Source: Microscillaceae bacterium
GTDB lineage: Bacteria; Bacteroidota; Bacteroidia; Cytophagales; Microscillaceae
Direction: 5' to 3'
NCBI GenBank assembly: GCA_025054775.1
Contig: JANWZA010000048.1
Span: 1 to 62,011 of the forward strand
DNA length: 62,011 bases
In this document: positions 5,622 to 61,665 of the stretch, in pieces
How positions within the stretch are numbered: the stretch's first letter is position 1
Layout: each line of letters begins with the position of its first letter
The notes under the pieces: model-generated
Database searches by the model: none
What the model saw: the letters and a program-made list of their open reading frames with translations, nothing else
What the model was told of the DNA's origin: nothing
Translations under genes and position numbers: made by a program

Positions 5622-5939
5622 TTAGTAGGTAGGAATACTGTTATCAACTTCGCGAGCGTATGCTAAAATACCTCCTTTGAGATTGTAGAGATTATCAAAG
5701 CCAAAGTTAGCTTCTAATTGGAGAATAGCATTCGCACTTCTAGCACCACTTCGGCAGTGAATGATTACGGGTTTGTCTCGGGCGATTTTGTCTACATTCT
5801 GCAGAATAGTACCTACGGGGATAAGCTGCGCTCCTAGCGTGGCAATTTCAGCTTCGTAAGGTTCGCGCACGTCAATCAGCTGAAAATCAGCTTTCTCATC
5901 CATCATTTTTTTTAGTTCTTGTACTGTAATCTCTTTCAT
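5622..5939 (-). CDS. Rhodanese-like domain protein
   Basis: The 105-residue protein is a single rhodanese domain. The start VQELKKMMDEKADFQLIDVREPYE is typical, and the active-site loop is CRSGARS with the persulfide-forming Cys. Such proteins carry sulfane sulfur or deliver it to acceptors, in the cytoplasm; no signal peptide is seen. CAAAAGTA at 5987-5994 reads as a -7 element on the minus strand, so it probably has its own promoter although ruvX lies upstream on the same strand with 108 bp between. It could relate to the distant SQR/SoxB-like genes, but nothing in the local context shows this. Confidence 0.9.
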   Translation of the reverse strand: MKEITVQELKKMMDEKADFQLIDVREPYEAEIATLGAQLIPVGTILQNVDKIARDKPVIIHCRSGARSANAILQLEANFGFDNLYNLKGGILAYAREVDNSIPTY

Positions 5940-48985: not shown

Positions 48986-49858
48986 ATGCCTAAAACCATT
49001 GCCCGCAATAGCTTGAAAGAACAAGAGATAACCACCAAGCAGGAAATCAGCGAAAATAGCCTAACGCCTAAAGAAACCAAAGAAATGAGTTTCTTAGAAC
49101 ACTTAGAAGAATTACGGTGGCACTTGATACGCTCTGCTATTGCCGTAGGAGTAGCTACTATAATAGCATTTGCCTTCCCTAGGCTTATTTTTCACCATAT
49201 CATTTTAGGACCCTCAAGAGCTGATTTTATTACTTATCGCTTTTTCTGTAATTTGAGCAAATACTTCCGCTCCGAAGCCCTCTGTATTGAAAAAATTAAC
49301 TTTATAATTCAGAGCCGAACCCCAGGCGGGCAGTTATTTATGCACCTCTCCTCATCTTTGGTTGTAGGGTTAATTATTGCTTTCCCTTATGTTTTTTGGC
49401 AAATTTGGAGTTTTGTCAAGCCAGGGCTTTACAAAAATGAACAGAGAATTACCCAACGGGCTACTTTTTATGTAAGTACTTTGTTTTTATTAGGAGTTAT
49501 GTTTGGTTATTTCTTACTCGCTCCGCTCTCTATCAATTTCTTAGCAAACTATCAGGTAGATGTAAGTATAACTAACCAATTTGATATTACGGCTTATGTC
49601 TCCACTATTACTACTTTGGTATTAGGTTGCGGGTTAGTATTTCAGCTGCCTATTATAGTATACTTTCTTACCCGAGCTGAAATAATTACTTCAAAACAAA
49701 TGAAAAAATACCGCAGGCATGCCATCGTAGGTATTTTGATTGTAGCTGCTATTATTACCCCACCTGATGTATTTACCCAAATTTTGGTAGCTATTCCCCT
49801 AACCTTACTTTATGAAGTAAGCATTTTCATATCCCAAAGTATTGAGAAAAAGCAATAA
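48986..49858 (+). CDS. tatC: Twin-arginine translocase subunit TatC
   Basis: TatC is the membrane receptor for twin-arginine signals. The 290-residue protein has the cytoplasmic N-terminal EMSFLEHLEELRWHLIRSA motif that binds the RR signal, six predicted helices and the conserved VFWQIWSFVKPGLYKNEQR segment. An extra stretch with two Cys (FFCNLSKYFRSEALCIEK) lies in the first periplasmic loop, longer than in E. coli. The SoxB-like protein of this window (55910-57601) has a Tat signal and is a likely client. gmhA follows after 36 bp. Confidence 0.95.
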   Translation: MPKTIARNSLKEQEITTKQEISENSLTPKETKEMSFLEHLEELRWHLIRSAIAVGVATIIAFAFPRLIFHHIILGPSRADFITYRFFCNLSKYFRSEALCIEKINFIIQSRTPGGQLFMHLSSSLVVGLIIAFPYVFWQIWSFVKPGLYKNEQRITQRATFYVSTLFLLGVMFGYFLLAPLSINFLANYQVDVSITNQFDITAYVSTITTLVLGCGLVFQLPIIVYFLTRAEIITSKQMKKYRRHAIVGILIVAAIITPPDVFTQILVAIPLTLLYEVSIFISQSIEKKQ

Positions 49859-53851: not shown

Positions 53852-55048
53852 ATGGCAAAACATCATCAAATTTTAATTGTAGGTGGCGGAAATGCAGGCA
53901 TTTCAGCTGCTGCACAGCTTTTGCGAAAAAATAGTAAATTAGATATCGCTATCATCGAACCTTCTGAAAAACATTATTACCAACCCGCTTGGACATTGGT
54001 AGGCGGTGGCGATTTTGACATCAATGCTACAGTGCGCAGGCAAGCCGACGTAATGCCTAAAAAAGCTACCTGGATTAAAGACCGTGCCACAGGCTTTGAG
54101 CCTACTCGTAACATAGTAATGACAGAAAAAAATGGAGAGATTTCTTATAAGTATCTTATCGTAGTTCCTGGCATTCAATTAGATTGGTACAAAGTCAAAG
54201 GGTTAGAAGAAACTTTGGGCAAAAATCAGGTGGCTTCTAATTACCTTTTTGAAACCGCTCCCCTGACATGGCAATTTGCTCAGAACATTAAGGCAGGAGA
54301 TAAAGTGATTTTCACTAATCCTAATACTCCTATTAAGTGTGGAGGCGCCCCACAAAAAATTATGTATCTTATTTCAGATTTCCTTCGCAAGAAAGGCATT
54401 TTGAATAAAGTGGAGGTGCATTACTACTCAGGCTCGGGGGTTATCTTCGGGGTGAAAAAATATGCCGATACGTTGAATAAAGTTATTGAAAGATATGGTA
54501 TCAAAACTCACTTTAAGCACAATTTGGTAGAGATTGATGGCAAGGCACGCAAAGCCTATTTCGTTGATGAAAATGGTAACCGTATAGAACAACCCTATGA
54601 TTTTATCCACGTAACGCCACCTCAATCTGCTCCCGACTTTATCAAAAATAGTCCACTTGCCGTAAAAGATAATCCTTTGGGCTGGGTTGACGTAGATAAA
54701 TATACCTTACAGCACAATCAATTCCCTAATATTTTTTCTTGTGGTGATGCTGCTAATACGCCTAACGCCAAAACAGGAGCCGCTATTCGCAAGCAAGTAC
54801 CTATTTTGGTAAAAAATTTACTACATCTCATCAATAACGAACCTATTGTAGATAAATACAATGGCTATGGTTCTTGTCCTCTGGTTACAGGTTATGGCAA
54901 ATTAGTATTAGCTGAATTTGACTACGACAATAAGCCCGTAGAAACTTTCCCTTTTGACCAGTCCAAAGAACGTTGGAGTATGTACCAACTTAAAAAACGC
55001 ATACTTCCTTGGTTATATTGGAACAGAATTTTGAAAGGTACAGCGTAA
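53852..55048 (+). CDS. sqr: Sulfide:quinone oxidoreductase (FAD-dependent, type II-like)
   Basis: SQR oxidises sulfide to sulfane sulfur or polysulfide and passes electrons to the quinone pool. The ATG at 53852 begins MAKHHQILIVGGGNAGISAA, a clean FAD-binding start; a TTG 27 bp upstream is open but not needed. The 398-residue protein has two Cys at family positions, C163 (NTPIKCGGAP) and C342 (GYGSCPLVTGYGK), and a second FAD motif NIFSCGDAANTPNAKTGAAI. The basic, aromatic C-terminus (QLKKRILPWLYWNRILKG) is the membrane-binding part. A terminator follows. It is the first gene of the sulfur cluster. Confidence 0.9.
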   Translation: MAKHHQILIVGGGNAGISAAAQLLRKNSKLDIAIIEPSEKHYYQPAWTLVGGGDFDINATVRRQADVMPKKATWIKDRATGFEPTRNIVMTEKNGEISYKYLIVVPGIQLDWYKVKGLEETLGKNQVASNYLFETAPLTWQFAQNIKAGDKVIFTNPNTPIKCGGAPQKIMYLISDFLRKKGILNKVEVHYYSGSGVIFGVKKYADTLNKVIERYGIKTHFKHNLVEIDGKARKAYFVDENGNRIEQPYDFIHVTPPQSAPDFIKNSPLAVKDNPLGWVDVDKYTLQHNQFPNIFSCGDAANTPNAKTGAAIRKQVPILVKNLLHLINNEPIVDKYNGYGSCPLVTGYGKLVLAEFDYDNKPVETFPFDQSKERWSMYQLKKRILPWLYWNRILKGTA

Positions 55049-55061
55049 AATAGATTTACTA

Positions 55062-55098
55062 AGAAAAGGTATGAAGCGGTTGCTTCTATACCTTTTCT
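55062..55098 (+). terminator. Hairpin between sqr and the DUF2490-type gene
   Basis: AGAAAAGGTAT (55062-55072) pairs exactly with ATACCTTTTCT (55088-55098), with an inner AAGC/GCTT. The T-run lies inside the stem. It may cut or attenuate transcription from sqr into the downstream genes. Confidence 0.6.
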
Positions 55099-55119
55099 GA
55101 TTGAATTAAGTATAAAAAT

Positions 55120-55842
55120 ATGTTTATATTTGTAATTATACTATTCCTATTTTGTATCAATCTCTATGGTCAAGCGAGGCAAGAGTTTTGGTCAAAAATT
55201 ACTGTAAATCAAAAAATAAGTAAATGTTGGACTATAGGTGGCGATGTGCAGTATCGTAGCCAAGCTAACCCGAATTCACAAATTAGGCAGCCTTTTGCTG
55301 AGGATTTGTTGTATGGTATCCGTTTAACTACCTTTTATCAAGTTTCAGAACAATACAAGGTATATTTCGTTTTTTCACCTTTTTTGTATTTCAGAAGTTC
55401 GGAGTTTACGACTTCAGGCAGTAGAAAAGAGATACACGAATATCGGTTTACATTAGGTATATTACAAAAAACTGAAATCAAAGGTATAAAAATTAGTAAT
55501 CGTGGCTTATACGAAATGCGTTTTTTACATTTATTTAGCCCATACACCACACAACAACACCGAGTACGGTGGCAATTACAAGCTATTGTACCACTTTTTA
55601 GTATTTCATCTGATAGAAATAAAGAATGGAGAGTAAATTACATGGTTTTCAATGAAATTTTTGCAGCAAAACCTATTGAATCAACTTTTCAAATTGACCA
55701 AAACCGTTTTTGTAATGCCTTGCAACTCAGCTACAAATTTATAGAACTAAACACGGGCTTACAAAAAACAATACAAAAAGTTAAACCAATTTATCAATGG
55801 CGTAATCAGTGGTACTTTTCTGCCCTTTTTTCATTAAATTGA
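55120..55842 (+). CDS. DUF2490-type outer-membrane barrel protein
   Basis: The 240-residue protein has a signal peptide (hydrophobic residues 2-15 ending YGQARQ). It then shows the DUF2490 pattern: ARQEFWSKITVNQKISKCWTIGGDVQYRSQ, RLTTFYQVSEQYKVYFVFSPFLYF, HRVRWQLQAIV and RVNYMVFNEIF, with alternating strands to a C-terminal barrel strand (WYFSALFSLN). It is expected in the outer membrane; the function of the family is unknown. It sits between sqr and the SoxB-like gene, which suggests a link with the sulfur genes (inference). Confidence 0.8.
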   Translation: MFIFVIILFLFCINLYGQARQEFWSKITVNQKISKCWTIGGDVQYRSQANPNSQIRQPFAEDLLYGIRLTTFYQVSEQYKVYFVFSPFLYFRSSEFTTSGSRKEIHEYRFTLGILQKTEIKGIKISNRGLYEMRFLHLFSPYTTQQHRVRWQLQAIVPLFSISSDRNKEWRVNYMVFNEIFAAKPIESTFQIDQNRFCNALQLSYKFIELNTGLQKTIQKVKPIYQWRNQWYFSALFSLN

Positions 55843-55909
55843 GCAGAAATTATTAAAAGTAGTAAAAAAACAAAATGGTCAAAGCTAAAGCAAACATCGC
55901 ACATAAACT

Positions 55910-57601
55910 ATGAGTAATCGACGAGACTTTCTGAAACAACTAAGTACTTTTTTAGGACTACCTTTAGTAGGAATGCCTGCGTTAGCTTCTGATTTAAGCC
56001 AAAATAAAAAGGAATTGCGAGAATTAAGTTCAGCTACCAACAATAAGCCTTTGAAAATCAGTATCTACCAAACTACTGACGTACATTGTCAAGTTCACGC
56101 ACATGATGAATTTTTTTGGGAAAATAATCAACCCGTATTTCGCAAAACAGGAGGATATGCTTACTTGAAAACTTTATTTGATACTTGGAGAAAAGCTAAT
56201 CCATTGAGTTTTTTTATTGACACGGGGGATATGTTTCAAGGAAGTGAGCTTGCTGCTAAAACCACAGGGCAAGCTCTTGTACCCATCCTGAACGAAATGG
56301 GCTATAATTTGTATCTGCCTGGGAATTGGGAAGTAGTATATGGTAAACGCAATATGCAACACTTGCTCGGAGCTTTGAATGCACCCAAGGTATGTGCTAA
56401 TATGTATCATGACTTGGGCAACGGGCAAAAAGGCGAGTTGATATTCCCACCTTATTACATTTGGTACGTAGCGGGTATAAAAATTGGTTTTTTAGGCTAT
56501 ACTGACCATTTAGTACCTATTCGGCAATCCCCTAATTACAGCAAGGGCATCATTTACACCAAACCAGAAGAGAATCTAAAACACTACGTACAAACGCTTA
56601 AAGACCAAGAGAAATGTGATTTCATAATTATTGTGGCTCATATTGGATTATCGCAGCAAATTGCTCTTGCAAATAATCCTGACTGCGAAGGGGTTAATTA
56701 CATTTTTGGAGGCGATACACATGAACGTGTACGTGAACCCATTGTTTGCCGATACGCTAAAGTGGTAGAACCTGGCGCCTTTGGCTCTTTCATAGGACAT
56801 TTGGAACTGACCGTACAAAATAAAAAAATAATTGAAGAGAAATATGAATTGATTGAGGTAAAATCTCCACACATAAAGCCTAATATTTTCATAGAAAAGC
56901 TAATTACAAATGCGGAAGTTCTGTTCAAAAAAGATTTGCAAGAGGTAATCGGTTATAGCACTATCCCTCTATATCGTTACTTCGTGATTGAAAATCCGAT
57001 AGATACTATGATTTTGAACGCTTTAGCTTGGAACTTTCCTGATATTGATATTGTGCTTTCTAACGGTTTTCGCTTTTGTCCTCCCCAAGCTACTGCTGAC
57101 CATACGGGGAATTTTCCTATTACAAGTGCTTATTTATATGATATGTTTCCTGTAGATAGTAACGCCAAAACTGCCAAAGTTACAGGACAACAACTAAAGA
57201 ATTGGTTAGAAAAAGAACTGAATAATGTTTTCGCCAAAGATGCTCGTGAGCGTTTTGGAGGTTGGGTAGTCAAGTTTCATGGTATGAAAGTGAAATTTTT
57301 TGCCTTTGCAGAAATGGGTAAACGCGTACAGGAAATTTCTATTCAAGGTAAACCTTTGGAACTTGACAAAACTTATACCATAGCCGCCTGCGAACGAGAT
57401 GGCGACCCTGACGATGTACTTTGCCGAATAAAAGGAGTAACCGAGCCACGCCTTTTGCCTAAAACTTTACATCAAATCATGAAAGAATACCTTAAACACA
57501 ATTCACCTGTTACACCCTTACCCGCTAAAAATGCTATCGCTTTAGATGCTCCTGCAACTTTACTTACCCAAGTTACAGGGGTAAACTATACTTTTCGTTA
57601 A
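55910..57601 (+). CDS. SoxB-like thiosulfohydrolase / 5'-nucleotidase-family protein, Tat-exported
   Basis: The 563-residue protein starts MSNRRDFLKQL, a twin-Arg signal, followed by a hydrophobic stretch. The two-metal phosphoesterase core has TTDVHCQVH (D57, H59), DTGDMFQGSE, PGNWEVVYG (138-145), VAHIGLS and FGGDTHERV. Trp replaces the His of the GNHE motif of 5'-nucleotidases, as in SoxB. The C-terminal domain matches SoxB too (LSNGFRFCPP, GKPLELDKTYTI, CRIKGVTEPRLLPKTLHQIM). SoxB hydrolyses the sulfone from a SoxYZ-bound intermediate. Assignment to SoxB is likely but not certain, since SoxYZ and SoxXA are not in the window. Confidence 0.7.
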   Translation: MSNRRDFLKQLSTFLGLPLVGMPALASDLSQNKKELRELSSATNNKPLKISIYQTTDVHCQVHAHDEFFWENNQPVFRKTGGYAYLKTLFDTWRKANPLSFFIDTGDMFQGSELAAKTTGQALVPILNEMGYNLYLPGNWEVVYGKRNMQHLLGALNAPKVCANMYHDLGNGQKGELIFPPYYIWYVAGIKIGFLGYTDHLVPIRQSPNYSKGIIYTKPEENLKHYVQTLKDQEKCDFIIIVAHIGLSQQIALANNPDCEGVNYIFGGDTHERVREPIVCRYAKVVEPGAFGSFIGHLELTVQNKKIIEEKYELIEVKSPHIKPNIFIEKLITNAEVLFKKDLQEVIGYSTIPLYRYFVIENPIDTMILNALAWNFPDIDIVLSNGFRFCPPQATADHTGNFPITSAYLYDMFPVDSNAKTAKVTGQQLKNWLEKELNNVFAKDARERFGGWVVKFHGMKVKFFAFAEMGKRVQEISIQGKPLELDKTYTIAACERDGDPDDVLCRIKGVTEPRLLPKTLHQIMKEYLKHNSPVTPLPAKNAIALDAPATLLTQVTGVNYTFR

Positions 57602-57653
57602 TTTTTGAATTGATTAAAACCTAACAAAATGTATTAAATAAAACCTAAATGCC

Positions 57654-58745
57654 ATGGAAAACAAAACACAAAATTATCATGAAATTTTAGCCATTGTTAA
57701 GCTTTTGCAAGCTATTACATTTTTAGTCTTGTTAGCAGTGGTTGTAATAGGGATCACTTTGGTAGAAGTCTATACAGGTGTATTTTCAAGAGTCTTCAAA
57801 TCAAGTCAAATCATAGCTACTAATAATAATTCTCAACCACTATTGAAAGAGAAACCCGACTATTGGACTGCTCCTGACACAGCAACTATTCCAAATACCC
57901 CTGAGGGTGAGTTGATACGATATGGTAGAAATTTGATTGCTCACACTGCTGAATATTTAGGGCAGAATGGTTCTGTTATGCAAATTTCTAATGGCATGAA
58001 TTGCCAAAACTGCCATTTAGAAGCAGGTACAAAACCCTATGGTAATAACTACGGCTCGGTAGCCTCTACCTATCCTAAATTTAGGGCAAGGTCAGGTACA
58101 AACGAAACCATAGTAAAACGAGTAAATGACTGCTTTGAGCGTAGCTTAAATGGAAAAGCTCTCGATAGTAATAGTCGTGAAATGAAAGCCATAGTAGCTT
58201 ATATTAAATGGTTAGGCAAAGATGTTCCCAAAGAGCAAACCGTCAAAGGTTCAGGCATTGTAGATTTGCCCTTTTTAGATAGAGCTGCCAGCCCTGAAAA
58301 AGGTAAATTAGTTTACGAACAAAAGTGTGCCGTTTGCCACAAAAAAGACGGAAGCGGAGAACCTAAACCTAATAGCAAAGAGTGGCTCTACCCTCCCCTT
58401 TGGGGTGAAAAAAGCTATAATCATGGAGCAGGAATGTACCGAATTTCACGATTAGCAGGATACGTTAAATACAATATGCCTCTTGGTGTGAAATATCCTA
58501 ATTCCCAACTTACGGATGAAGAAGCTTGGGACGTAGCAGCTTATATCAATAGTATGCCTCGCCCTGCCAAAGATTTGAGTAAAGATTGGCCTGATATTAC
58601 TAAAAAACCACTTGACCATCCCTTCGGACCTTTTGCTGACGGTTTTGATGAAAAACAACATAAATTCGGACCCTTTGCACCAATTAAAGCTAAAAGAGAG
58701 GCAATGGAGAAGTCTAAACAGAGTATCAAAATTGCACAAAAATAA
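57654..58745 (+). CDS. Diheme c-type cytochrome, TsdA-like (thiosulfate dehydrogenase family), membrane-anchored
   Basis: The 363-residue protein has one N-terminal helix (about 17-40) with no clear cleavage site, so it is probably anchored facing the periplasm. Heme sites are CQNCH (117-121) and CAVCH (225-229). The segments YPKFRARSGTNETIVKRVNDCFERSLNGKAL and NGMNCQNCHLEAGT match TsdA. C160 lies 39 residues after the first heme His, near the spacing of the Cys ligand of TsdA heme 1, and Met275 lies 46 after the second, like the heme 2 Met. It may interconvert thiosulfate and tetrathionate. It is 52 bp after the SoxB-like gene and 8 bp before the MFS gene. Confidence 0.82.
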   Translation: MENKTQNYHEILAIVKLLQAITFLVLLAVVVIGITLVEVYTGVFSRVFKSSQIIATNNNSQPLLKEKPDYWTAPDTATIPNTPEGELIRYGRNLIAHTAEYLGQNGSVMQISNGMNCQNCHLEAGTKPYGNNYGSVASTYPKFRARSGTNETIVKRVNDCFERSLNGKALDSNSREMKAIVAYIKWLGKDVPKEQTVKGSGIVDLPFLDRAASPEKGKLVYEQKCAVCHKKDGSGEPKPNSKEWLYPPLWGEKSYNHGAGMYRISRLAGYVKYNMPLGVKYPNSQLTDEEAWDVAAYINSMPRPAKDLSKDWPDITKKPLDHPFGPFADGFDEKQHKFGPFAPIKAKREAMEKSKQSIKIAQK

Positions 58746-58753
58746 CTTTTGCA

Positions 58754-59965
58754 ATGAACTCAACTACTCAGACTCTACCTTCGCTAGGTTTGCATACTAA
58801 TTGGAAACAATTTACTTTGCTCGTGATAGTCAATGTCTTTGTTGGGGCTATGTTTGGTTTAGAGCGAAGTATTTTTCCTGAATATGCCGAAAAAGTTTTT
58901 GGTATTACTTCCGCTACCGCTATTTTGTCTTTTATTATTGCTTTTGGCATAAGCAAAGCAGTTACTAATTATTTTACAGGAAAACTAATAAGTTATTTCG
59001 GTAGAAAAAGGCTTTTAGTCATAGGCTGGATGTGGGCTTTACCTATTCCTTGGCTGTTGGTGGTGGCAAATAGCTGGGCTTGGGTGGTAATAGCTAATTT
59101 GTTGTTAGGCATAAGCCAGGGGCTTACGTGGAGCAGTGCAGTTATTATGAAAATAGACCTTGTTGGTGAAAAGCAACGCGGGCTAGCTATGGGCTTTAAT
59201 GAATTTGCAGGCTATTTTGCCGTAGGAATAGTGGCTTGGGTAAGTGCTTGGATAGCTACTAATTATGGTATTAAGCCCTTCCCTTTCTATTTGGGAATAG
59301 GATTTACTTTTATTGGATTATTGTTGAGTTGGATTTGGGTAAAGGATACTACGCACTTCGTAAACACAGAAGCCAAACAAAGTATGCAAACAACACATCA
59401 AAATATCTTTTGGGCTACTACTTGGAAAGATAAAAATTTAGGTAGTATCACACAAGCAGGTTTTGTCAATAATTTGAATGACGGCATGATGTGGGGGCTT
59501 TTCCCAGTTTTTTTGGCAAATGCAAGCATACCTCTCAACCATATTGGTTGGATAGTTGCACTTTACCCCACTACTTGGGGAATTCTACAGATTTTTACGG
59601 GAAGATTAGCTGATATTCTTCCCAAAAAGCAAATGTTATTTGGAGGGATGTTATTACAAGGTATAGTAATCAGCCTCTTACCATTCTTTACTTCTATTCC
59701 TTGGATAACCCTTTTAGCTATCTTGTTAGGGCTAGGAACAGCTTGGGTATATCCAACCTTTTTAGCAGCCATTGCTACTTACACTCACCCTACACAACGA
59801 GCTGAAAGTTTGGGAATATTCCGCTTTTGGCGCGACATGGGCTATGCCATAGGAGCTTTGCTATCAGGAATAATAGCAGACAAATGGGGAGTGGCATCTG
59901 CAATCTTTTTTATAGGAATAATTACTATTTTTTCAGCACTTATCGTTCAAGTTAGAGCAAAATGA
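58754..59965 (+). CDS. MFS transporter of unknown substrate
   Basis: The 403-residue protein has 12 predicted helices in two six-helix halves and the loop GKLISYFGRKRLLVIG between helices 2 and 3, a MFS signature variant. FGLERSIFPEYAEKVFGI occurs in the first helix region. The substrate is unknown. It lies 8 bp after the cytochrome and overlaps the porin by 4 bp, so transport of a sulfur compound (thiosulfate, tetrathionate or a related anion) is a reasonable inference. Confidence 0.88.
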   Translation: MNSTTQTLPSLGLHTNWKQFTLLVIVNVFVGAMFGLERSIFPEYAEKVFGITSATAILSFIIAFGISKAVTNYFTGKLISYFGRKRLLVIGWMWALPIPWLLVVANSWAWVVIANLLLGISQGLTWSSAVIMKIDLVGEKQRGLAMGFNEFAGYFAVGIVAWVSAWIATNYGIKPFPFYLGIGFTFIGLLLSWIWVKDTTHFVNTEAKQSMQTTHQNIFWATTWKDKNLGSITQAGFVNNLNDGMMWGLFPVFLANASIPLNHIGWIVALYPTTWGILQIFTGRLADILPKKQMLFGGMLLQGIVISLLPFFTSIPWITLLAILLGLGTAWVYPTFLAAIATYTHPTQRAESLGIFRFWRDMGYAIGALLSGIIADKWGVASAIFFIGIITIFSALIVQVRAK

Positions 59966-61365
59966 AAAAGACCATTTTTCTAGGAGTAGTGTACCTATTA
60001 TGCCTCTTGACTTGGAACAGAGCATTAGCTCAACAAGAATTACATAACAAAGATAAACACAACTTGTTGTATTATTTCAAAAATGGAAAATGGAACGGAC
60101 ACTTCCGTAACTATCTTATGGCAACTGACAACGGCAGAAAAGAGCTAACTGACTACTATGCGAATGCCATTGCCGCTGATGTTCACTATGAAACGGCTCA
60201 ATGGAAAGGACTTCATGCAGGGTTCGGCACAAGTTTCGTCTATAATACTGCCTCTTCAGATTTGGGTAAGCCTGATGCGGTTACAGGGCAGTTCAACCGC
60301 TATGAAATTGGCTTATTTGATTTAGCTAAACCTTATCAAGCCCTCATTGGAACAATTGACGAACTTTTTATTAGCTATGCTTGGGGCAAATCAGAAATCA
60401 CTTGGGGAAAGCAAAAACTCGTTACTCCCTGGCTCAATCCCCAAGATGGGCGCATGCGTCCTAATTTTCAAGAAGGATTATACATTGATTTTCAAGAGGT
60501 TAAAAATCTACGTATAGAATTGGCATGGATATATCGCTTTTTGGTACGCTCTACTGAAATTTGGCCTACCATTGCTAATAGCATTGGGCAATATCCCACA
60601 GGCGTAACTCCTGATGGCGTACGGTCAAGTTATACCAACAATTTGAAAAGTGCAGGGTTAGGAATATTAGGCATAACCTATGCCTTTACGCCACAAATCA
60701 AAACTCAATTTTGGAACTATTTTACCGAAAATATTTTTAATACGATGTTTTGGCAAACCGAAGCCGAAATACCTTTGAGCAAAAGTGAAAATAAGAATAA
60801 ACTACTAGCAGGTATGCAATTTCATTTCCAAACTGCTCTCAACGATGGAGGAAATTCCAATCCTGAATTAGCATATATTCCTAAAAATCAACGAAATTGG
60901 GTATTGAGTAGCCGTGTAGGTTGGAAAACTACCCAAAAATTACTTACGCTCAATTATACTCGCATAGGCAACCACGGTAGGTTTCTTTTTCCAAGAGAGT
61001 GGGGACGCGACCCATTCTATACTTTTTTGCCACGTGAACGAAACGAAGGCTATGGAGATGTAAATGCTTTTATGATACAACTCGGGCAGAATTTACCTAA
61101 AATGAAAACACGCATAGAAATTGGCTATGGGCATTATTATTTACCCAATCCCGATAATGCCAGCCTTAACAAATACGGGTTCCCAAGTTACAACCAAATT
61201 AACCTCAATCTTGTTCATCAGTGCAAGGGCTTGTTAGAAGGATTACAAGCACAATTTTTGTACGTCTATAAGGGGAAACTTGGAGAAACCTACAATAATC
61301 CTCGTTTTGAATTTAATAAAGTGAATATGAGCCTTTACAATTTTATTTTGAATTATAATTTTTAA
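59962..61365 (+). CDS. OprD-like outer-membrane porin
   Basis: The 467-residue protein has a signal peptide (MKKTIFLGVVYLLCLLTWNRALAQ) and long alternating beta strands. GHFRNYLMATDNG, WGKSEITWGKQKLVTPWLNPQDGRMRPNFQEGLYIDF and the C-terminal YNFILNYNF fit the OprD-type specific porin layout. Its start codon overlaps the MFS stop by 4 bp (ATGA), so the two are co-translated: outer-membrane entry plus inner-membrane passage for one substrate (inference). The substrate is unknown. Confidence 0.82.
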   Translation: MKKTIFLGVVYLLCLLTWNRALAQQELHNKDKHNLLYYFKNGKWNGHFRNYLMATDNGRKELTDYYANAIAADVHYETAQWKGLHAGFGTSFVYNTASSDLGKPDAVTGQFNRYEIGLFDLAKPYQALIGTIDELFISYAWGKSEITWGKQKLVTPWLNPQDGRMRPNFQEGLYIDFQEVKNLRIELAWIYRFLVRSTEIWPTIANSIGQYPTGVTPDGVRSSYTNNLKSAGLGILGITYAFTPQIKTQFWNYFTENIFNTMFWQTEAEIPLSKSENKNKLLAGMQFHFQTALNDGGNSNPELAYIPKNQRNWVLSSRVGWKTTQKLLTLNYTRIGNHGRFLFPREWGRDPFYTFLPRERNEGYGDVNAFMIQLGQNLPKMKTRIEIGYGHYYLPNPDNASLNKYGFPSYNQINLNLVHQCKGLLEGLQAQFLYVYKGKLGETYNNPRFEFNKVNMSLYNFILNYNF

Positions 61366-61398
61366 TTTTTATTTTCAACTTAAAAACCTACAAACAAC

Positions 61399-61665
61399 AT
61401 GGAAAAATACGAAATTCAGGTAGAAAACATAAAATGCGGTGGCTGTATGAATAGTATTAAAAAAGCCCTGCAAGCCATAGAGGGTGTGCAAACGGTAGAA
61501 GTATGGAAAGAGACAGAAACCGTTATAGTAGAAGGAGTGGCTAACTTATACCATAAAATCACTGAAAAATTAGCCTCTTTGGGCTATCCTGAAAAAGGAA
61601 ACAATAACCTTTTGCATAAAGCCAAATCTTATATAAGTTGTGCTGTTGGTAGGCTAACTGCATAG
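61399..61665 (+). CDS. Small HMA-domain protein (CxxC)
   Basis: The 88-residue protein is a single heavy-metal-associated ferredoxin-like fold: YEIQVENIKCGGCMNSIKKAL (C13, C16) followed by VEVWKETETVIVEG and ITEKLASLGYPE. Such proteins carry Cu(I) or other soft metals. A third Cys sits in the C-terminal extension (YISCAVGRLTA). It follows the porin by 33 bp as the last gene of the sulfur cluster. It may protect or supply metal, or bind sulfane sulfur through the Cys pair; which one is not known. Confidence 0.88.
   Translation: MEKYEIQVENIKCGGCMNSIKKALQAIEGVQTVEVWKETETVIVEGVANLYHKITEKLASLGYPEKGNNNLLHKAKSYISCAVGRLTA

What the first reader, a model, noticed from the sequence alone, without database searches (positions are those of the whole stretch)
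53852..61665. Compact sulfur-oxidation module lacking the usual Sox genes
Seven same-strand genes combine sulfide oxidation (SQR), a Tat-exported SoxB-like hydrolase, a TsdA-like diheme cytochrome, an MFS transporter overlapping an OprD-like porin, a DUF2490-type barrel and an HMA protein. No SoxXA, SoxYZ or SoxCD gene is present in the window. This could be a self-contained route that imports, hydrolyses or oxidises thiosulfate-type compounds and feeds electrons to the quinone and cytochrome pools. I know of no named system with this gene set in Bacteroidota.
Basis: partly seen in the sequence, partly recalled or inferred. Interest (0 to 1): 0.78.

Follow-up and report, generated by a model that had tools for sequence, protein, structure and literature searches.

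The report
Bacteroidota thiosulfate-oxidation gene cassette
These genes look like part of a known but little-studied bacterial route that burns sulfide and thiosulfate without the classical Sox carrier proteins; related gene sets recur in many Bacteroidota, sometimes on plasmids, and a small exported protein encoded beside them may stand in for the missing carrier.

Summary
The seven genes are real, on one strand and operon-like. The genome, not just the window, lacks SoxY, SoxZ, SoxC-type genes and any SoxA above cut-off, while a control rang. Two claims fail. The set is not self-contained: three of the seven (SoxB-like, TsdA, OprD) belong to a larger recurring Bacteroidota cassette, and in this genome further parts (exported DsrE, YeeE/DUF6691; TauE, persulfide dioxygenase-rhodanese, rhodanese) sit on two other contigs; a relative has them in one row. 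SQR, MFS, DUF2490 and HMA are rare near the SoxB-like gene. And a named system exists: the TsdA-SoxB-Sdo pathway of Erythrobacter flavus 21-3, which needs no SoxXA/YZ/CD and whose authors list Bacteroidetes. Most likely route: sulfide to thiosulfate inside the cell, thiosulfate to tetrathionate by TsdA, sulfate released by the SoxB-like enzyme. That enzyme belongs to a separate clade with SoxB's Trp and Arg marks but Asp for a usual His. Boldest open reading: the exported DsrE, whose Cys is present in 58 of 58 rows (54 distinct), replaces SoxYZ. New variant of a known kind; all function is inferred.

The parts
53852..55048 (+). SQR, sulfide:quinone oxidoreductase of the human SQOR type
   Evidence: 6mp5 E 6.5e-124, both Cys-bearing stretches (KCxGAPQ, SCPLVTGY) aligned; only copy in the genome at E<=1e-10; within 7 kb of the SoxB-like gene in 2 of 38 other loci, on the other strand in both; in 4 of 80 TsdA loci
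55120..55842 (+). DUF2490 protein (that the family is an outer-membrane barrel is recalled); accessory
   Evidence: 54.5 bits, cut-off 29.8; 1 of 80 TsdA loci, L032; 0 of 38
55910..57601 (+). SoxB-like di-metal hydrolase family protein with twin-arginine start (MSNRRDFLKQL)
   Evidence: best PDB sequence match SoxB 2wdc (6.6e-26); TIGR04486 228 of 550 bits needed; AF2 model pLDDT 88.9, best PDB fold match SoxB; Trp140, Asp269, Arg388 invariant in the 37 rows of A2
57654..58745 (+). TsdA-type diheme cytochrome c with a hydrophobic N-terminal stretch (by eye)
   Evidence: TsdA 4wqc E 6.5e-46; two CxxCH, heme-1 Cys (DCFERSLNG), heme-2 NMPLG
58754..59965 (+). MFS transporter, substrate unknown
   Evidence: PF07690 154.6 bits; 12 of 80 TsdA loci, 0 of 38 SoxB-like loci
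59962..61365 (+). OprD-like outer-membrane porin
   Evidence: PF03573 42.7 bits, cut-off 25; 20 of 38 loci within 7 kb, all 20 on the same strand
61399..61665 (+). small HMA (CxxC) metal-binding protein; accessory
   Evidence: PF00403 45.6 bits; 1 of 38 loci, 1 of 80
48986..49858 (+). TatC; export machinery the SoxB-like enzyme would need (housekeeping neighbour, not part of the module)
   Evidence: PF00902 233 bits

Best explanation
It is the envelope half of a Bacteroidota version of the TsdA-SoxB-sulfur dioxygenase thiosulfate-oxidation route, joined in this genome to sulfide oxidation by SQR. Inferred flow: SQR takes electrons from sulfide to quinone and makes persulfide; the MBL-rhodanese dioxygenase and rhodanese (contig C59) turn persulfide into sulfite and then thiosulfate in the cytoplasm; thiosulfate from inside or outside (through the OprD porin) is oxidised to tetrathionate by TsdA, with electrons going to cytochrome c; the Tat-exported SoxB-like hydrolase cleaves the terminal sulfonate off tetrathionate, or off a protein-bound thiosulfonate, releasing sulfate; the remaining sulfane sulfur returns through YeeE/DUF6691 (contig C27) to the dioxygenase. 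Shown here: gene content, conservation, co-occurrence, absence of SoxY, SoxZ, PF00174 and above-cut-off SoxA from the genome, protein families, predicted folds. Inferred: every reaction, the direction of TsdA, the transport roles, the export routes.
For: Families and folds. SoxB-like and TsdA co-occur in 36 genomes of 295 against 8.1 expected, Fisher p 2.5e-26, and lie within 7 kb in 28 of 38 loci, 27 of the 28 on the same strand. Neighbours within 7 kb are sulfur genes: YeeE 23, MBL-rhodanese 22, DUF6691 22, OprD 20, TauE 18, DsrE 16 of 38. This genome carries DsrE-YeeE-DUF6691 on C27 and TauE-MBL/rhodanese-rhodanese on C59. SoxY, SoxZ and PF00174 absent, SoxA only below cut-off, controls positive. 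Genetics in E. flavus: deletion of tsdA or soxB almost abolishes sulfur-globule formation, and Sdo acts downstream (PMC7608252, parts 1, 3 and 4 of 7 read). SoxB has thiosulfohydrolase activity on trithionate (PMC5336275, passages).
Against: No biochemical data on any Bacteroidota member was found in my searches. The SoxB-like protein is far below the SoxB equivalog cut-off (228 of 550 bits), lies in its own long-branched clade and has Asp in place of a usual His. A twin-arginine-like start was matched in 48 of 73 full-length family rows and a lipobox-like one in 6, so the export route is not uniform. Ten of 38 SoxB-like loci show no TsdA within 7 kb (some are contig ends, but in G020, G095, G127 and G267 TsdA is elsewhere in the genome). 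TsdA has Asn before the heme-2 Met, as in the tetrathionate reductase of Campylobacter. The E. flavus SoxB sequence was not fetched, so orthology is untested.
Confidence: 0.72

Rival explanations
1. Tetrathionate respiration: TsdA runs mainly as a tetrathionate reductase, OprD admits tetrathionate, and the SoxB-like hydrolase deals with by-products.
For: Asn precedes the heme-2 Met in 91 of 100 clustered TsdA rows (89 of 95 distinct), and Asn at that place is found in the C. jejuni reductase (PMC5146829, passages).
Against: PMC6879331 (passages) says the A. vinosum K208N variant keeps the wild type's residual reductase activity, so Asn alone does not set direction; the neighbourhood is oxidative (MBL-rhodanese dioxygenase within 7 kb in 22 of 38 loci; that it needs oxygen is recalled).
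Confidence: 0.13
2. Sulfide and thiol detoxification or sulfur salvage only, with the SoxB-like protein a nucleotidase-type phosphatase that happens to sit beside sulfur genes.
For: The plasmid records name its relatives 'bifunctional metallophosphatase/5'-nucleotidase'; 5'-nucleotidase structures are close behind SoxB in the fold search.
Against: It lacks the His of the nucleotidase GNH(E/D) motif and has Trp as SoxB does, plus the SoxB-like Arg; a quick tree puts it away from UshA-type enzymes; co-occurrence with TsdA is strong. In E. flavus the functional SoxB was likewise annotated as metallophosphatase/5'-nucleotidase.
Confidence: 0.1
3. The seven genes are two unrelated neighbours: a sulfur part (SQR, SoxB-like, TsdA) and an uptake pair (MFS-OprD) for an organic solute.
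For: No MFS gene of this kind was found within 7 kb of the SoxB-like gene in the 38 sampled loci, and its substrate cannot be read from the profile matches.
Against: OprD recurs at 20 of 38 SoxB-like loci, always on the same strand, and on the two Runella plasmids between the SoxB-like and YeeE genes; the MFS gene occurs in 12 of 80 TsdA loci.
Confidence: 0.15

Closest known systems
TsdA-SoxB-SdoA/B thiosulfate oxidation pathway of Erythrobacter flavus 21-3 (PMC7608252)
   Same: TsdA plus SoxB-domain hydrolase plus MBL-rhodanese dioxygenase; no SoxXA/YZ/CD; tsdA, soxB and sdoA in one upregulated cluster; authors list Bacteroidetes among bearers
   Different: Here a separate SoxB-like clade with Asp269, an SQR in the operon (the paper says E. 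flavus lacks SQR), OprD porin, exported DsrE, YeeE/DUF6691; in this genome spread over three contigs. A term search of the paper's main text found no DsrE, porin or YeeE; the supplement was not seen.
Classical Sox system (SoxXA, SoxYZ, SoxB, SoxCD)
   Same: SoxB-family hydrolase; a cytochrome of the SoxA/TsdA family
   Different: SoxY, SoxZ, SoxC-type and above-cut-off SoxA genes not found in the genome
SQR - persulfide dioxygenase sulfide oxidation of heterotrophs (start of abstract of PMC6245092 seen in a listing; the rhodanese step is recalled)
   Same: SQR, an MBL-rhodanese dioxygenase and rhodanese are in this genome
   Different: Here TsdA and the SoxB-like enzyme are added downstream of thiosulfate
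DsrE3A-TusA thiosulfonate transfer of Metallosphaera cuprina (PMC4175335, passages)
   Same: DsrE-family protein with conserved Cys, in an organism handling tetrathionate
   Different: There the gene lies beside a heterodisulfide-reductase-like complex; here most members have an export-type N-terminus and lie beside TsdA

Membership tests
TsdA-SoxB-Sdo pathway (E. flavus) | TsdA present | tested here: met
   (4wqc 6.5e-46)
TsdA-SoxB-Sdo pathway (E. flavus) | SoxB-domain hydrolase encoded with TsdA | tested here: met
   in relatives 28 of 38 loci
TsdA-SoxB-Sdo pathway (E. flavus) | MBL-rhodanese dioxygenase in the genome | tested here: met
   C59:10236-11657; the family is in 248 of 295 genomes, so weak evidence
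TsdA-SoxB-Sdo pathway (E. flavus) | no SoxXA/YZ/CD | tested here: met
   for SoxY, SoxA, SoxZ and SoxC type; SoxX and SoxD not searched
TsdA-SoxB-Sdo pathway (E. flavus) | SoxB-like protein orthologous to E. flavus D0Y83_01365 | not tested
   that sequence was not fetched
TsdA-SoxB-Sdo pathway (E. flavus) | thiosulfate to tetrathionate to sulfate plus zero-valent sulfur | not testable with these tools
   needs culture or purified protein
Classical Sox system | SoxYZ carrier | tested here: not met
   0 in the genome; control 1.3e-31 and 7.8e-30
Classical Sox system | SoxXA | tested here: not met
   SoxA only below cut-off (32.6 and 19.7 of 110 bits), control 231.3 bits; SoxX not searched
Classical Sox system | SoxB at the TIGR04486 equivalog cut-off | tested here: not met
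   228.3 of 550 bits
5'-nucleotidase | GNH(E/D) His (catalytic role recalled) | tested here: not met
   GNWE; Trp140 invariant in 37 rows
TsdA | two CxxCH hemes, Cys ligand to heme 1, Met ligand to heme 2 | tested here: met
   alignment; ligand roles from PMC5146829 passages
Human-type SQR | full-length match with both redox Cys stretches | tested here: met
   the redox role of the two Cys is recalled
DsrE/DsrF family (partner gene on C27) | DsrE fold and conserved Cys | tested here: met
   PF02635 39.9 bits, cut-off 22.7; AF2 of the L032 homologue pLDDT 92.3, best PDB 1l1s, further DsrE-family hits 3mc3 and 2qs7; Cys in 58 of 58 clustered rows, 54 distinct

The most novel reading that the evidence does not exclude
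A Sox-like cycle with a different carrier: the exported DsrE protein replaces SoxYZ. TsdA (a homologue of SoxA) or its product tetrathionate loads thiosulfate onto the invariant DsrE cysteine as Cys-S-S-SO3, the Asp-variant SoxB-like hydrolase removes sulfate from that carrier, and rhodanese or YeeE/DUF6691 takes the sulfane on. The whole cassette moves between Bacteroidota, also on plasmids.
Probability: 0.22. Interest if true: 0.75.

Novelty: new variant of a known kind. Interest (0 to 1): 0.5.

Why it matters
Thiosulfate and sulfide oxidation in Bacteroidota is easy to miss when surveys look for SoxYZ, SoxXA or SoxB at curated cut-offs: SoxY is over its cut-off in 0 of 295 Bacteroidia genomes (one sub-cutoff hit), yet 36 of 295 carry TsdA plus the SoxB-like hydrolase. 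Cultured, named carriers exist (Runella, Pontibacter), so the pathway, and the idea that an exported DsrE replaces SoxYZ, can be tested directly.

Tried and rejected
Sox genes elsewhere in the genome were looked for (SoxY, SoxZ, SoxA, SoxC type) and not found above cut-off. That the SoxB-like protein is an ordinary 5'-nucleotidase was rejected on motif and tree; the fold search puts SoxB first but does not separate the two families strongly. That SQR, MFS, DUF2490 and HMA belong to the core was rejected. A sulfite oxidase as last step was looked for with PF00174: none, while 9 of 14 control genomes rang. MBL-rhodanese co-occurrence was dropped as genome-wide evidence because 248 of 295 genomes have it. 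That DsrE goes specifically with the SoxB-like gene was not borne out: within TsdA-positive genomes 22 of 36 with and 11 of 25 without the SoxB-like gene have DsrE (p 0.20). The DsrE-TsdA link (33 of 37) is inflated by construction, since the DsrE profile A1 was built from DsrE genes mostly found beside TsdA. No exact overlap between this contig's ends and the fetched stretches of C27 and C59 was found, so I do not claim they adjoin. The promoter scan gave fewer sites than shuffles and the terminator scan 11 against 7.6 (sd 3.1); Rfam gave nothing. My simple ORF caller missed some genes in GC-rich loci, so neighbourhood counts were taken from tblastn. G221 counts as TsdA-positive by neighbourhood but not by the 1e-30 threshold; the SoxB-like hit of G097 is a piece with two stops.
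Full report
WHAT IS THERE. Pfam, NCBIfam and PDB sequence searches confirm the families: an SQR of the human type (6mp5, E 6.5e-124), DUF2490, a SoxB/5'-nucleotidase-family hydrolase with a twin-arginine start, a TsdA-type diheme cytochrome (4wqc, E 6.5e-46), an MFS transporter, an OprD-like porin and a small HMA protein. A TatC gene lies about 4 kb upstream of the SQR gene. The window is a whole contig, C28 of a 3.01 Mb, 99% complete genome in 65 contigs, and ends 346 bases after the HMA gene.

NO SOX CARRIER GENES. SoxY (PF13501), SoxZ (PF08770) and the SoxC-type domain (PF00174) have no match in the genome; SoxA (TIGR04484) gives only the TsdA gene itself (32.6 bits) and one weaker hit on C61 (19.7 bits), under the 110-bit cut-off. 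The same four searches ring on the Paracoccus ferrooxidans plasmid that bears a sox operon. SoxX and SoxD were not searched. Across a sample of 295 Bacteroidia genomes SoxY is over its cut-off in none, with one sub-cutoff hit.

THE REST OF THE ROUTE. The nearest relative (L032, an uncultured Cytophagales MAG) has TauE, MBL-rhodanese, two rhodaneses, a small protein, thioredoxin, SQR, DUF2490, SoxB-like, TsdA, MFS, OprD, DsrE, YeeE, DUF6691 in one row. In the window's own genome further pieces are on two other contigs: DsrE, YeeE and DUF6691 at C27:4144-5748, and TauE, MBL-rhodanese and a rhodanese at C59:9348-11998, 67-85% identical to the L032 proteins. L032's exported rhodanese and thioredoxin had no match in the stretches I took; the rest of the genome was not searched for them. 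So the seven genes are not self-contained.

CORE AND ACCESSORY. In the 38 other SoxB-like-positive genomes of the class sample, tblastn found within 7 kb of the SoxB-like gene: TsdA 28, YeeE 23, MBL-rhodanese 22, DUF6691 22, OprD 20, TauE 18, DsrE 16, SQR 2, HMA 1, MFS 0, DUF2490 0 (some stretches are contig ends and none was dropped). One copy would fall within 7 kb by chance in about 0.4% of genomes. Genome-wide, SoxB-like 39 and TsdA 61 of 295, both in 36 (expected 8.1, p 2.5e-26); DsrE 37, with TsdA in 33 (expected 7.7, p 1.4e-22). These p-values ignore relatedness of the genomes, and the DsrE profile was built from DsrE genes mostly found beside TsdA, which inflates the second figure. Against a tie of DsrE to the SoxB-like gene as such: within TsdA-positive genomes 22 of 36 against 11 of 25, p 0.20. 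TauE, MBL, TsdA, DsrE, SoxB-like, OprD, YeeE and DUF6691 sit together on plasmids of Runella rosea and R. slithyformis, and variants on Pontibacter akesuensis and Hymenobacter plasmids.

THE SOXB-LIKE ENZYME. It matches the SoxB profile at 228 bits, under the 550-bit cut-off. Its AlphaFold model (pLDDT 88.9) matches SoxB structures best (2wdc, TM 0.78/0.81), with 5'-nucleotidases close behind. It carries Trp where nucleotidases have the GNH His, as SoxB does, and the SoxB-like Arg; but where the three Sox-operon SoxB and the UshA-type sequences compared have the first His of GHxH it has Asp269, invariant in the 37 rows of A2. That this column binds metal is recalled family knowledge. In a quick tree the sampled family, all from Bacteroidota, is one clade (100*), next to SoxB-like proteins without an export signal and apart from the three Sox-operon SoxB; long branches were flagged. 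A twin-arginine-like start was matched in 48 of 73 full-length rows, a lipobox-like one in 6. The primary SoxB structure paper is not held.

TSDA. In the window protein two CxxCH, the Cys ligand and the Met ligand are kept. The residue before the Met is Asn, as in C. jejuni TsdA and in 91 of 100 clustered rows (89 of 95 distinct). This leaves the direction open; the oxidative neighbourhood argues for thiosulfate oxidation.

THE EXPORTED DSRE. Of 58 clustered DsrE rows (54 distinct) 53 have a hydrophobic N-terminus by my simple window test, and one Cys is present in 58 of 58. The own-genome copy on C27 also shows a signal-like start by eye and keeps this Cys. The L032 protein folds as DsrE (pLDDT 92.3; PDB 1l1s, 2pd2, 3mc3). 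DsrE3A of Metallosphaera takes a thiosulfonate from tetrathionate on Cys (PMC4175335, passages), TsdA works through a Cys-S-thiosulfonate and is a homologue of SoxAX (PMC4423706, passages), and SoxYZ itself is expected to gain a thiosulfonate from tetrathionate (PMC5336275, passages). Hence the novel reading that DsrE replaces SoxYZ. It is untested.

KNOWN SYSTEM. Zhang et al. 2020 (PMC7608252; parts 1, 3 and 4 of 7 read) showed by deletion in Erythrobacter flavus 21-3 that TsdA makes tetrathionate, a SoxB-domain protein is needed to turn it into sulfate and zero-valent sulfur, and Sdo proteins act on the latter, without SoxXA/YZ/CD; they report tsdA plus soxB in Bacteroidetes (supplement not seen). 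A 2025 study uses the same reading for sediment MAGs (PMC12345210, passages). Eight literature searches (capped lists, titles and abstract starts) listed no paper that I recognised as describing this Bacteroidota cassette or an exported DsrE in it; the library is open-access only.

VERDICT.

Noticed in passing
L151, L152 (Runella plasmids), L156 (Pontibacter plasmid), L168 (Hymenobacter plasmid): The same sulfur cassette or variants of it lie on Bacteroidota plasmids, so it is probably mobile.
   Followed up: partly
L076, L079, L097, L098, L105, L110 (cluster c44): A protein with a twin-arginine-like start in five of the six lies beside or near TsdA in loci without a SoxB-like gene; DsrE is also there in five (not L076). 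The one member scanned had no Pfam match; its C-terminal part looks like the exported DsrE family by eye.
   Followed up: partly
L153, L155, L168, L169, L170, L156:8336-9781: SoxB-family proteins that start without an export signal (by eye), in Proteobacteria, Bacillota and Bacteroidota, group beside the exported clade (support 81).
   Followed up: partly
L167 (Methylosinus trichosporium OB3b plasmid): soxZ-soxB-DsrE-DsrE gene order: DsrE genes beside an annotated soxB too.
   Followed up: no
window 5622-5939, - strand: A further small rhodanese-like protein (105 aa) far from the cluster.
   Followed up: no
L163:5840-6454 (contig C27): A Tll0287-family protein (PF11845) follows the DsrE-YeeE-DUF6691 genes; L032 has a 72% identical protein about 1.2 kb past its DUF6691 gene.
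   Followed up: no
L112 (G221): A 695-aa ORF beside the SoxB-like gene appears to contain the TsdA-like stretch; possibly a fused cytochrome.
   Followed up: no
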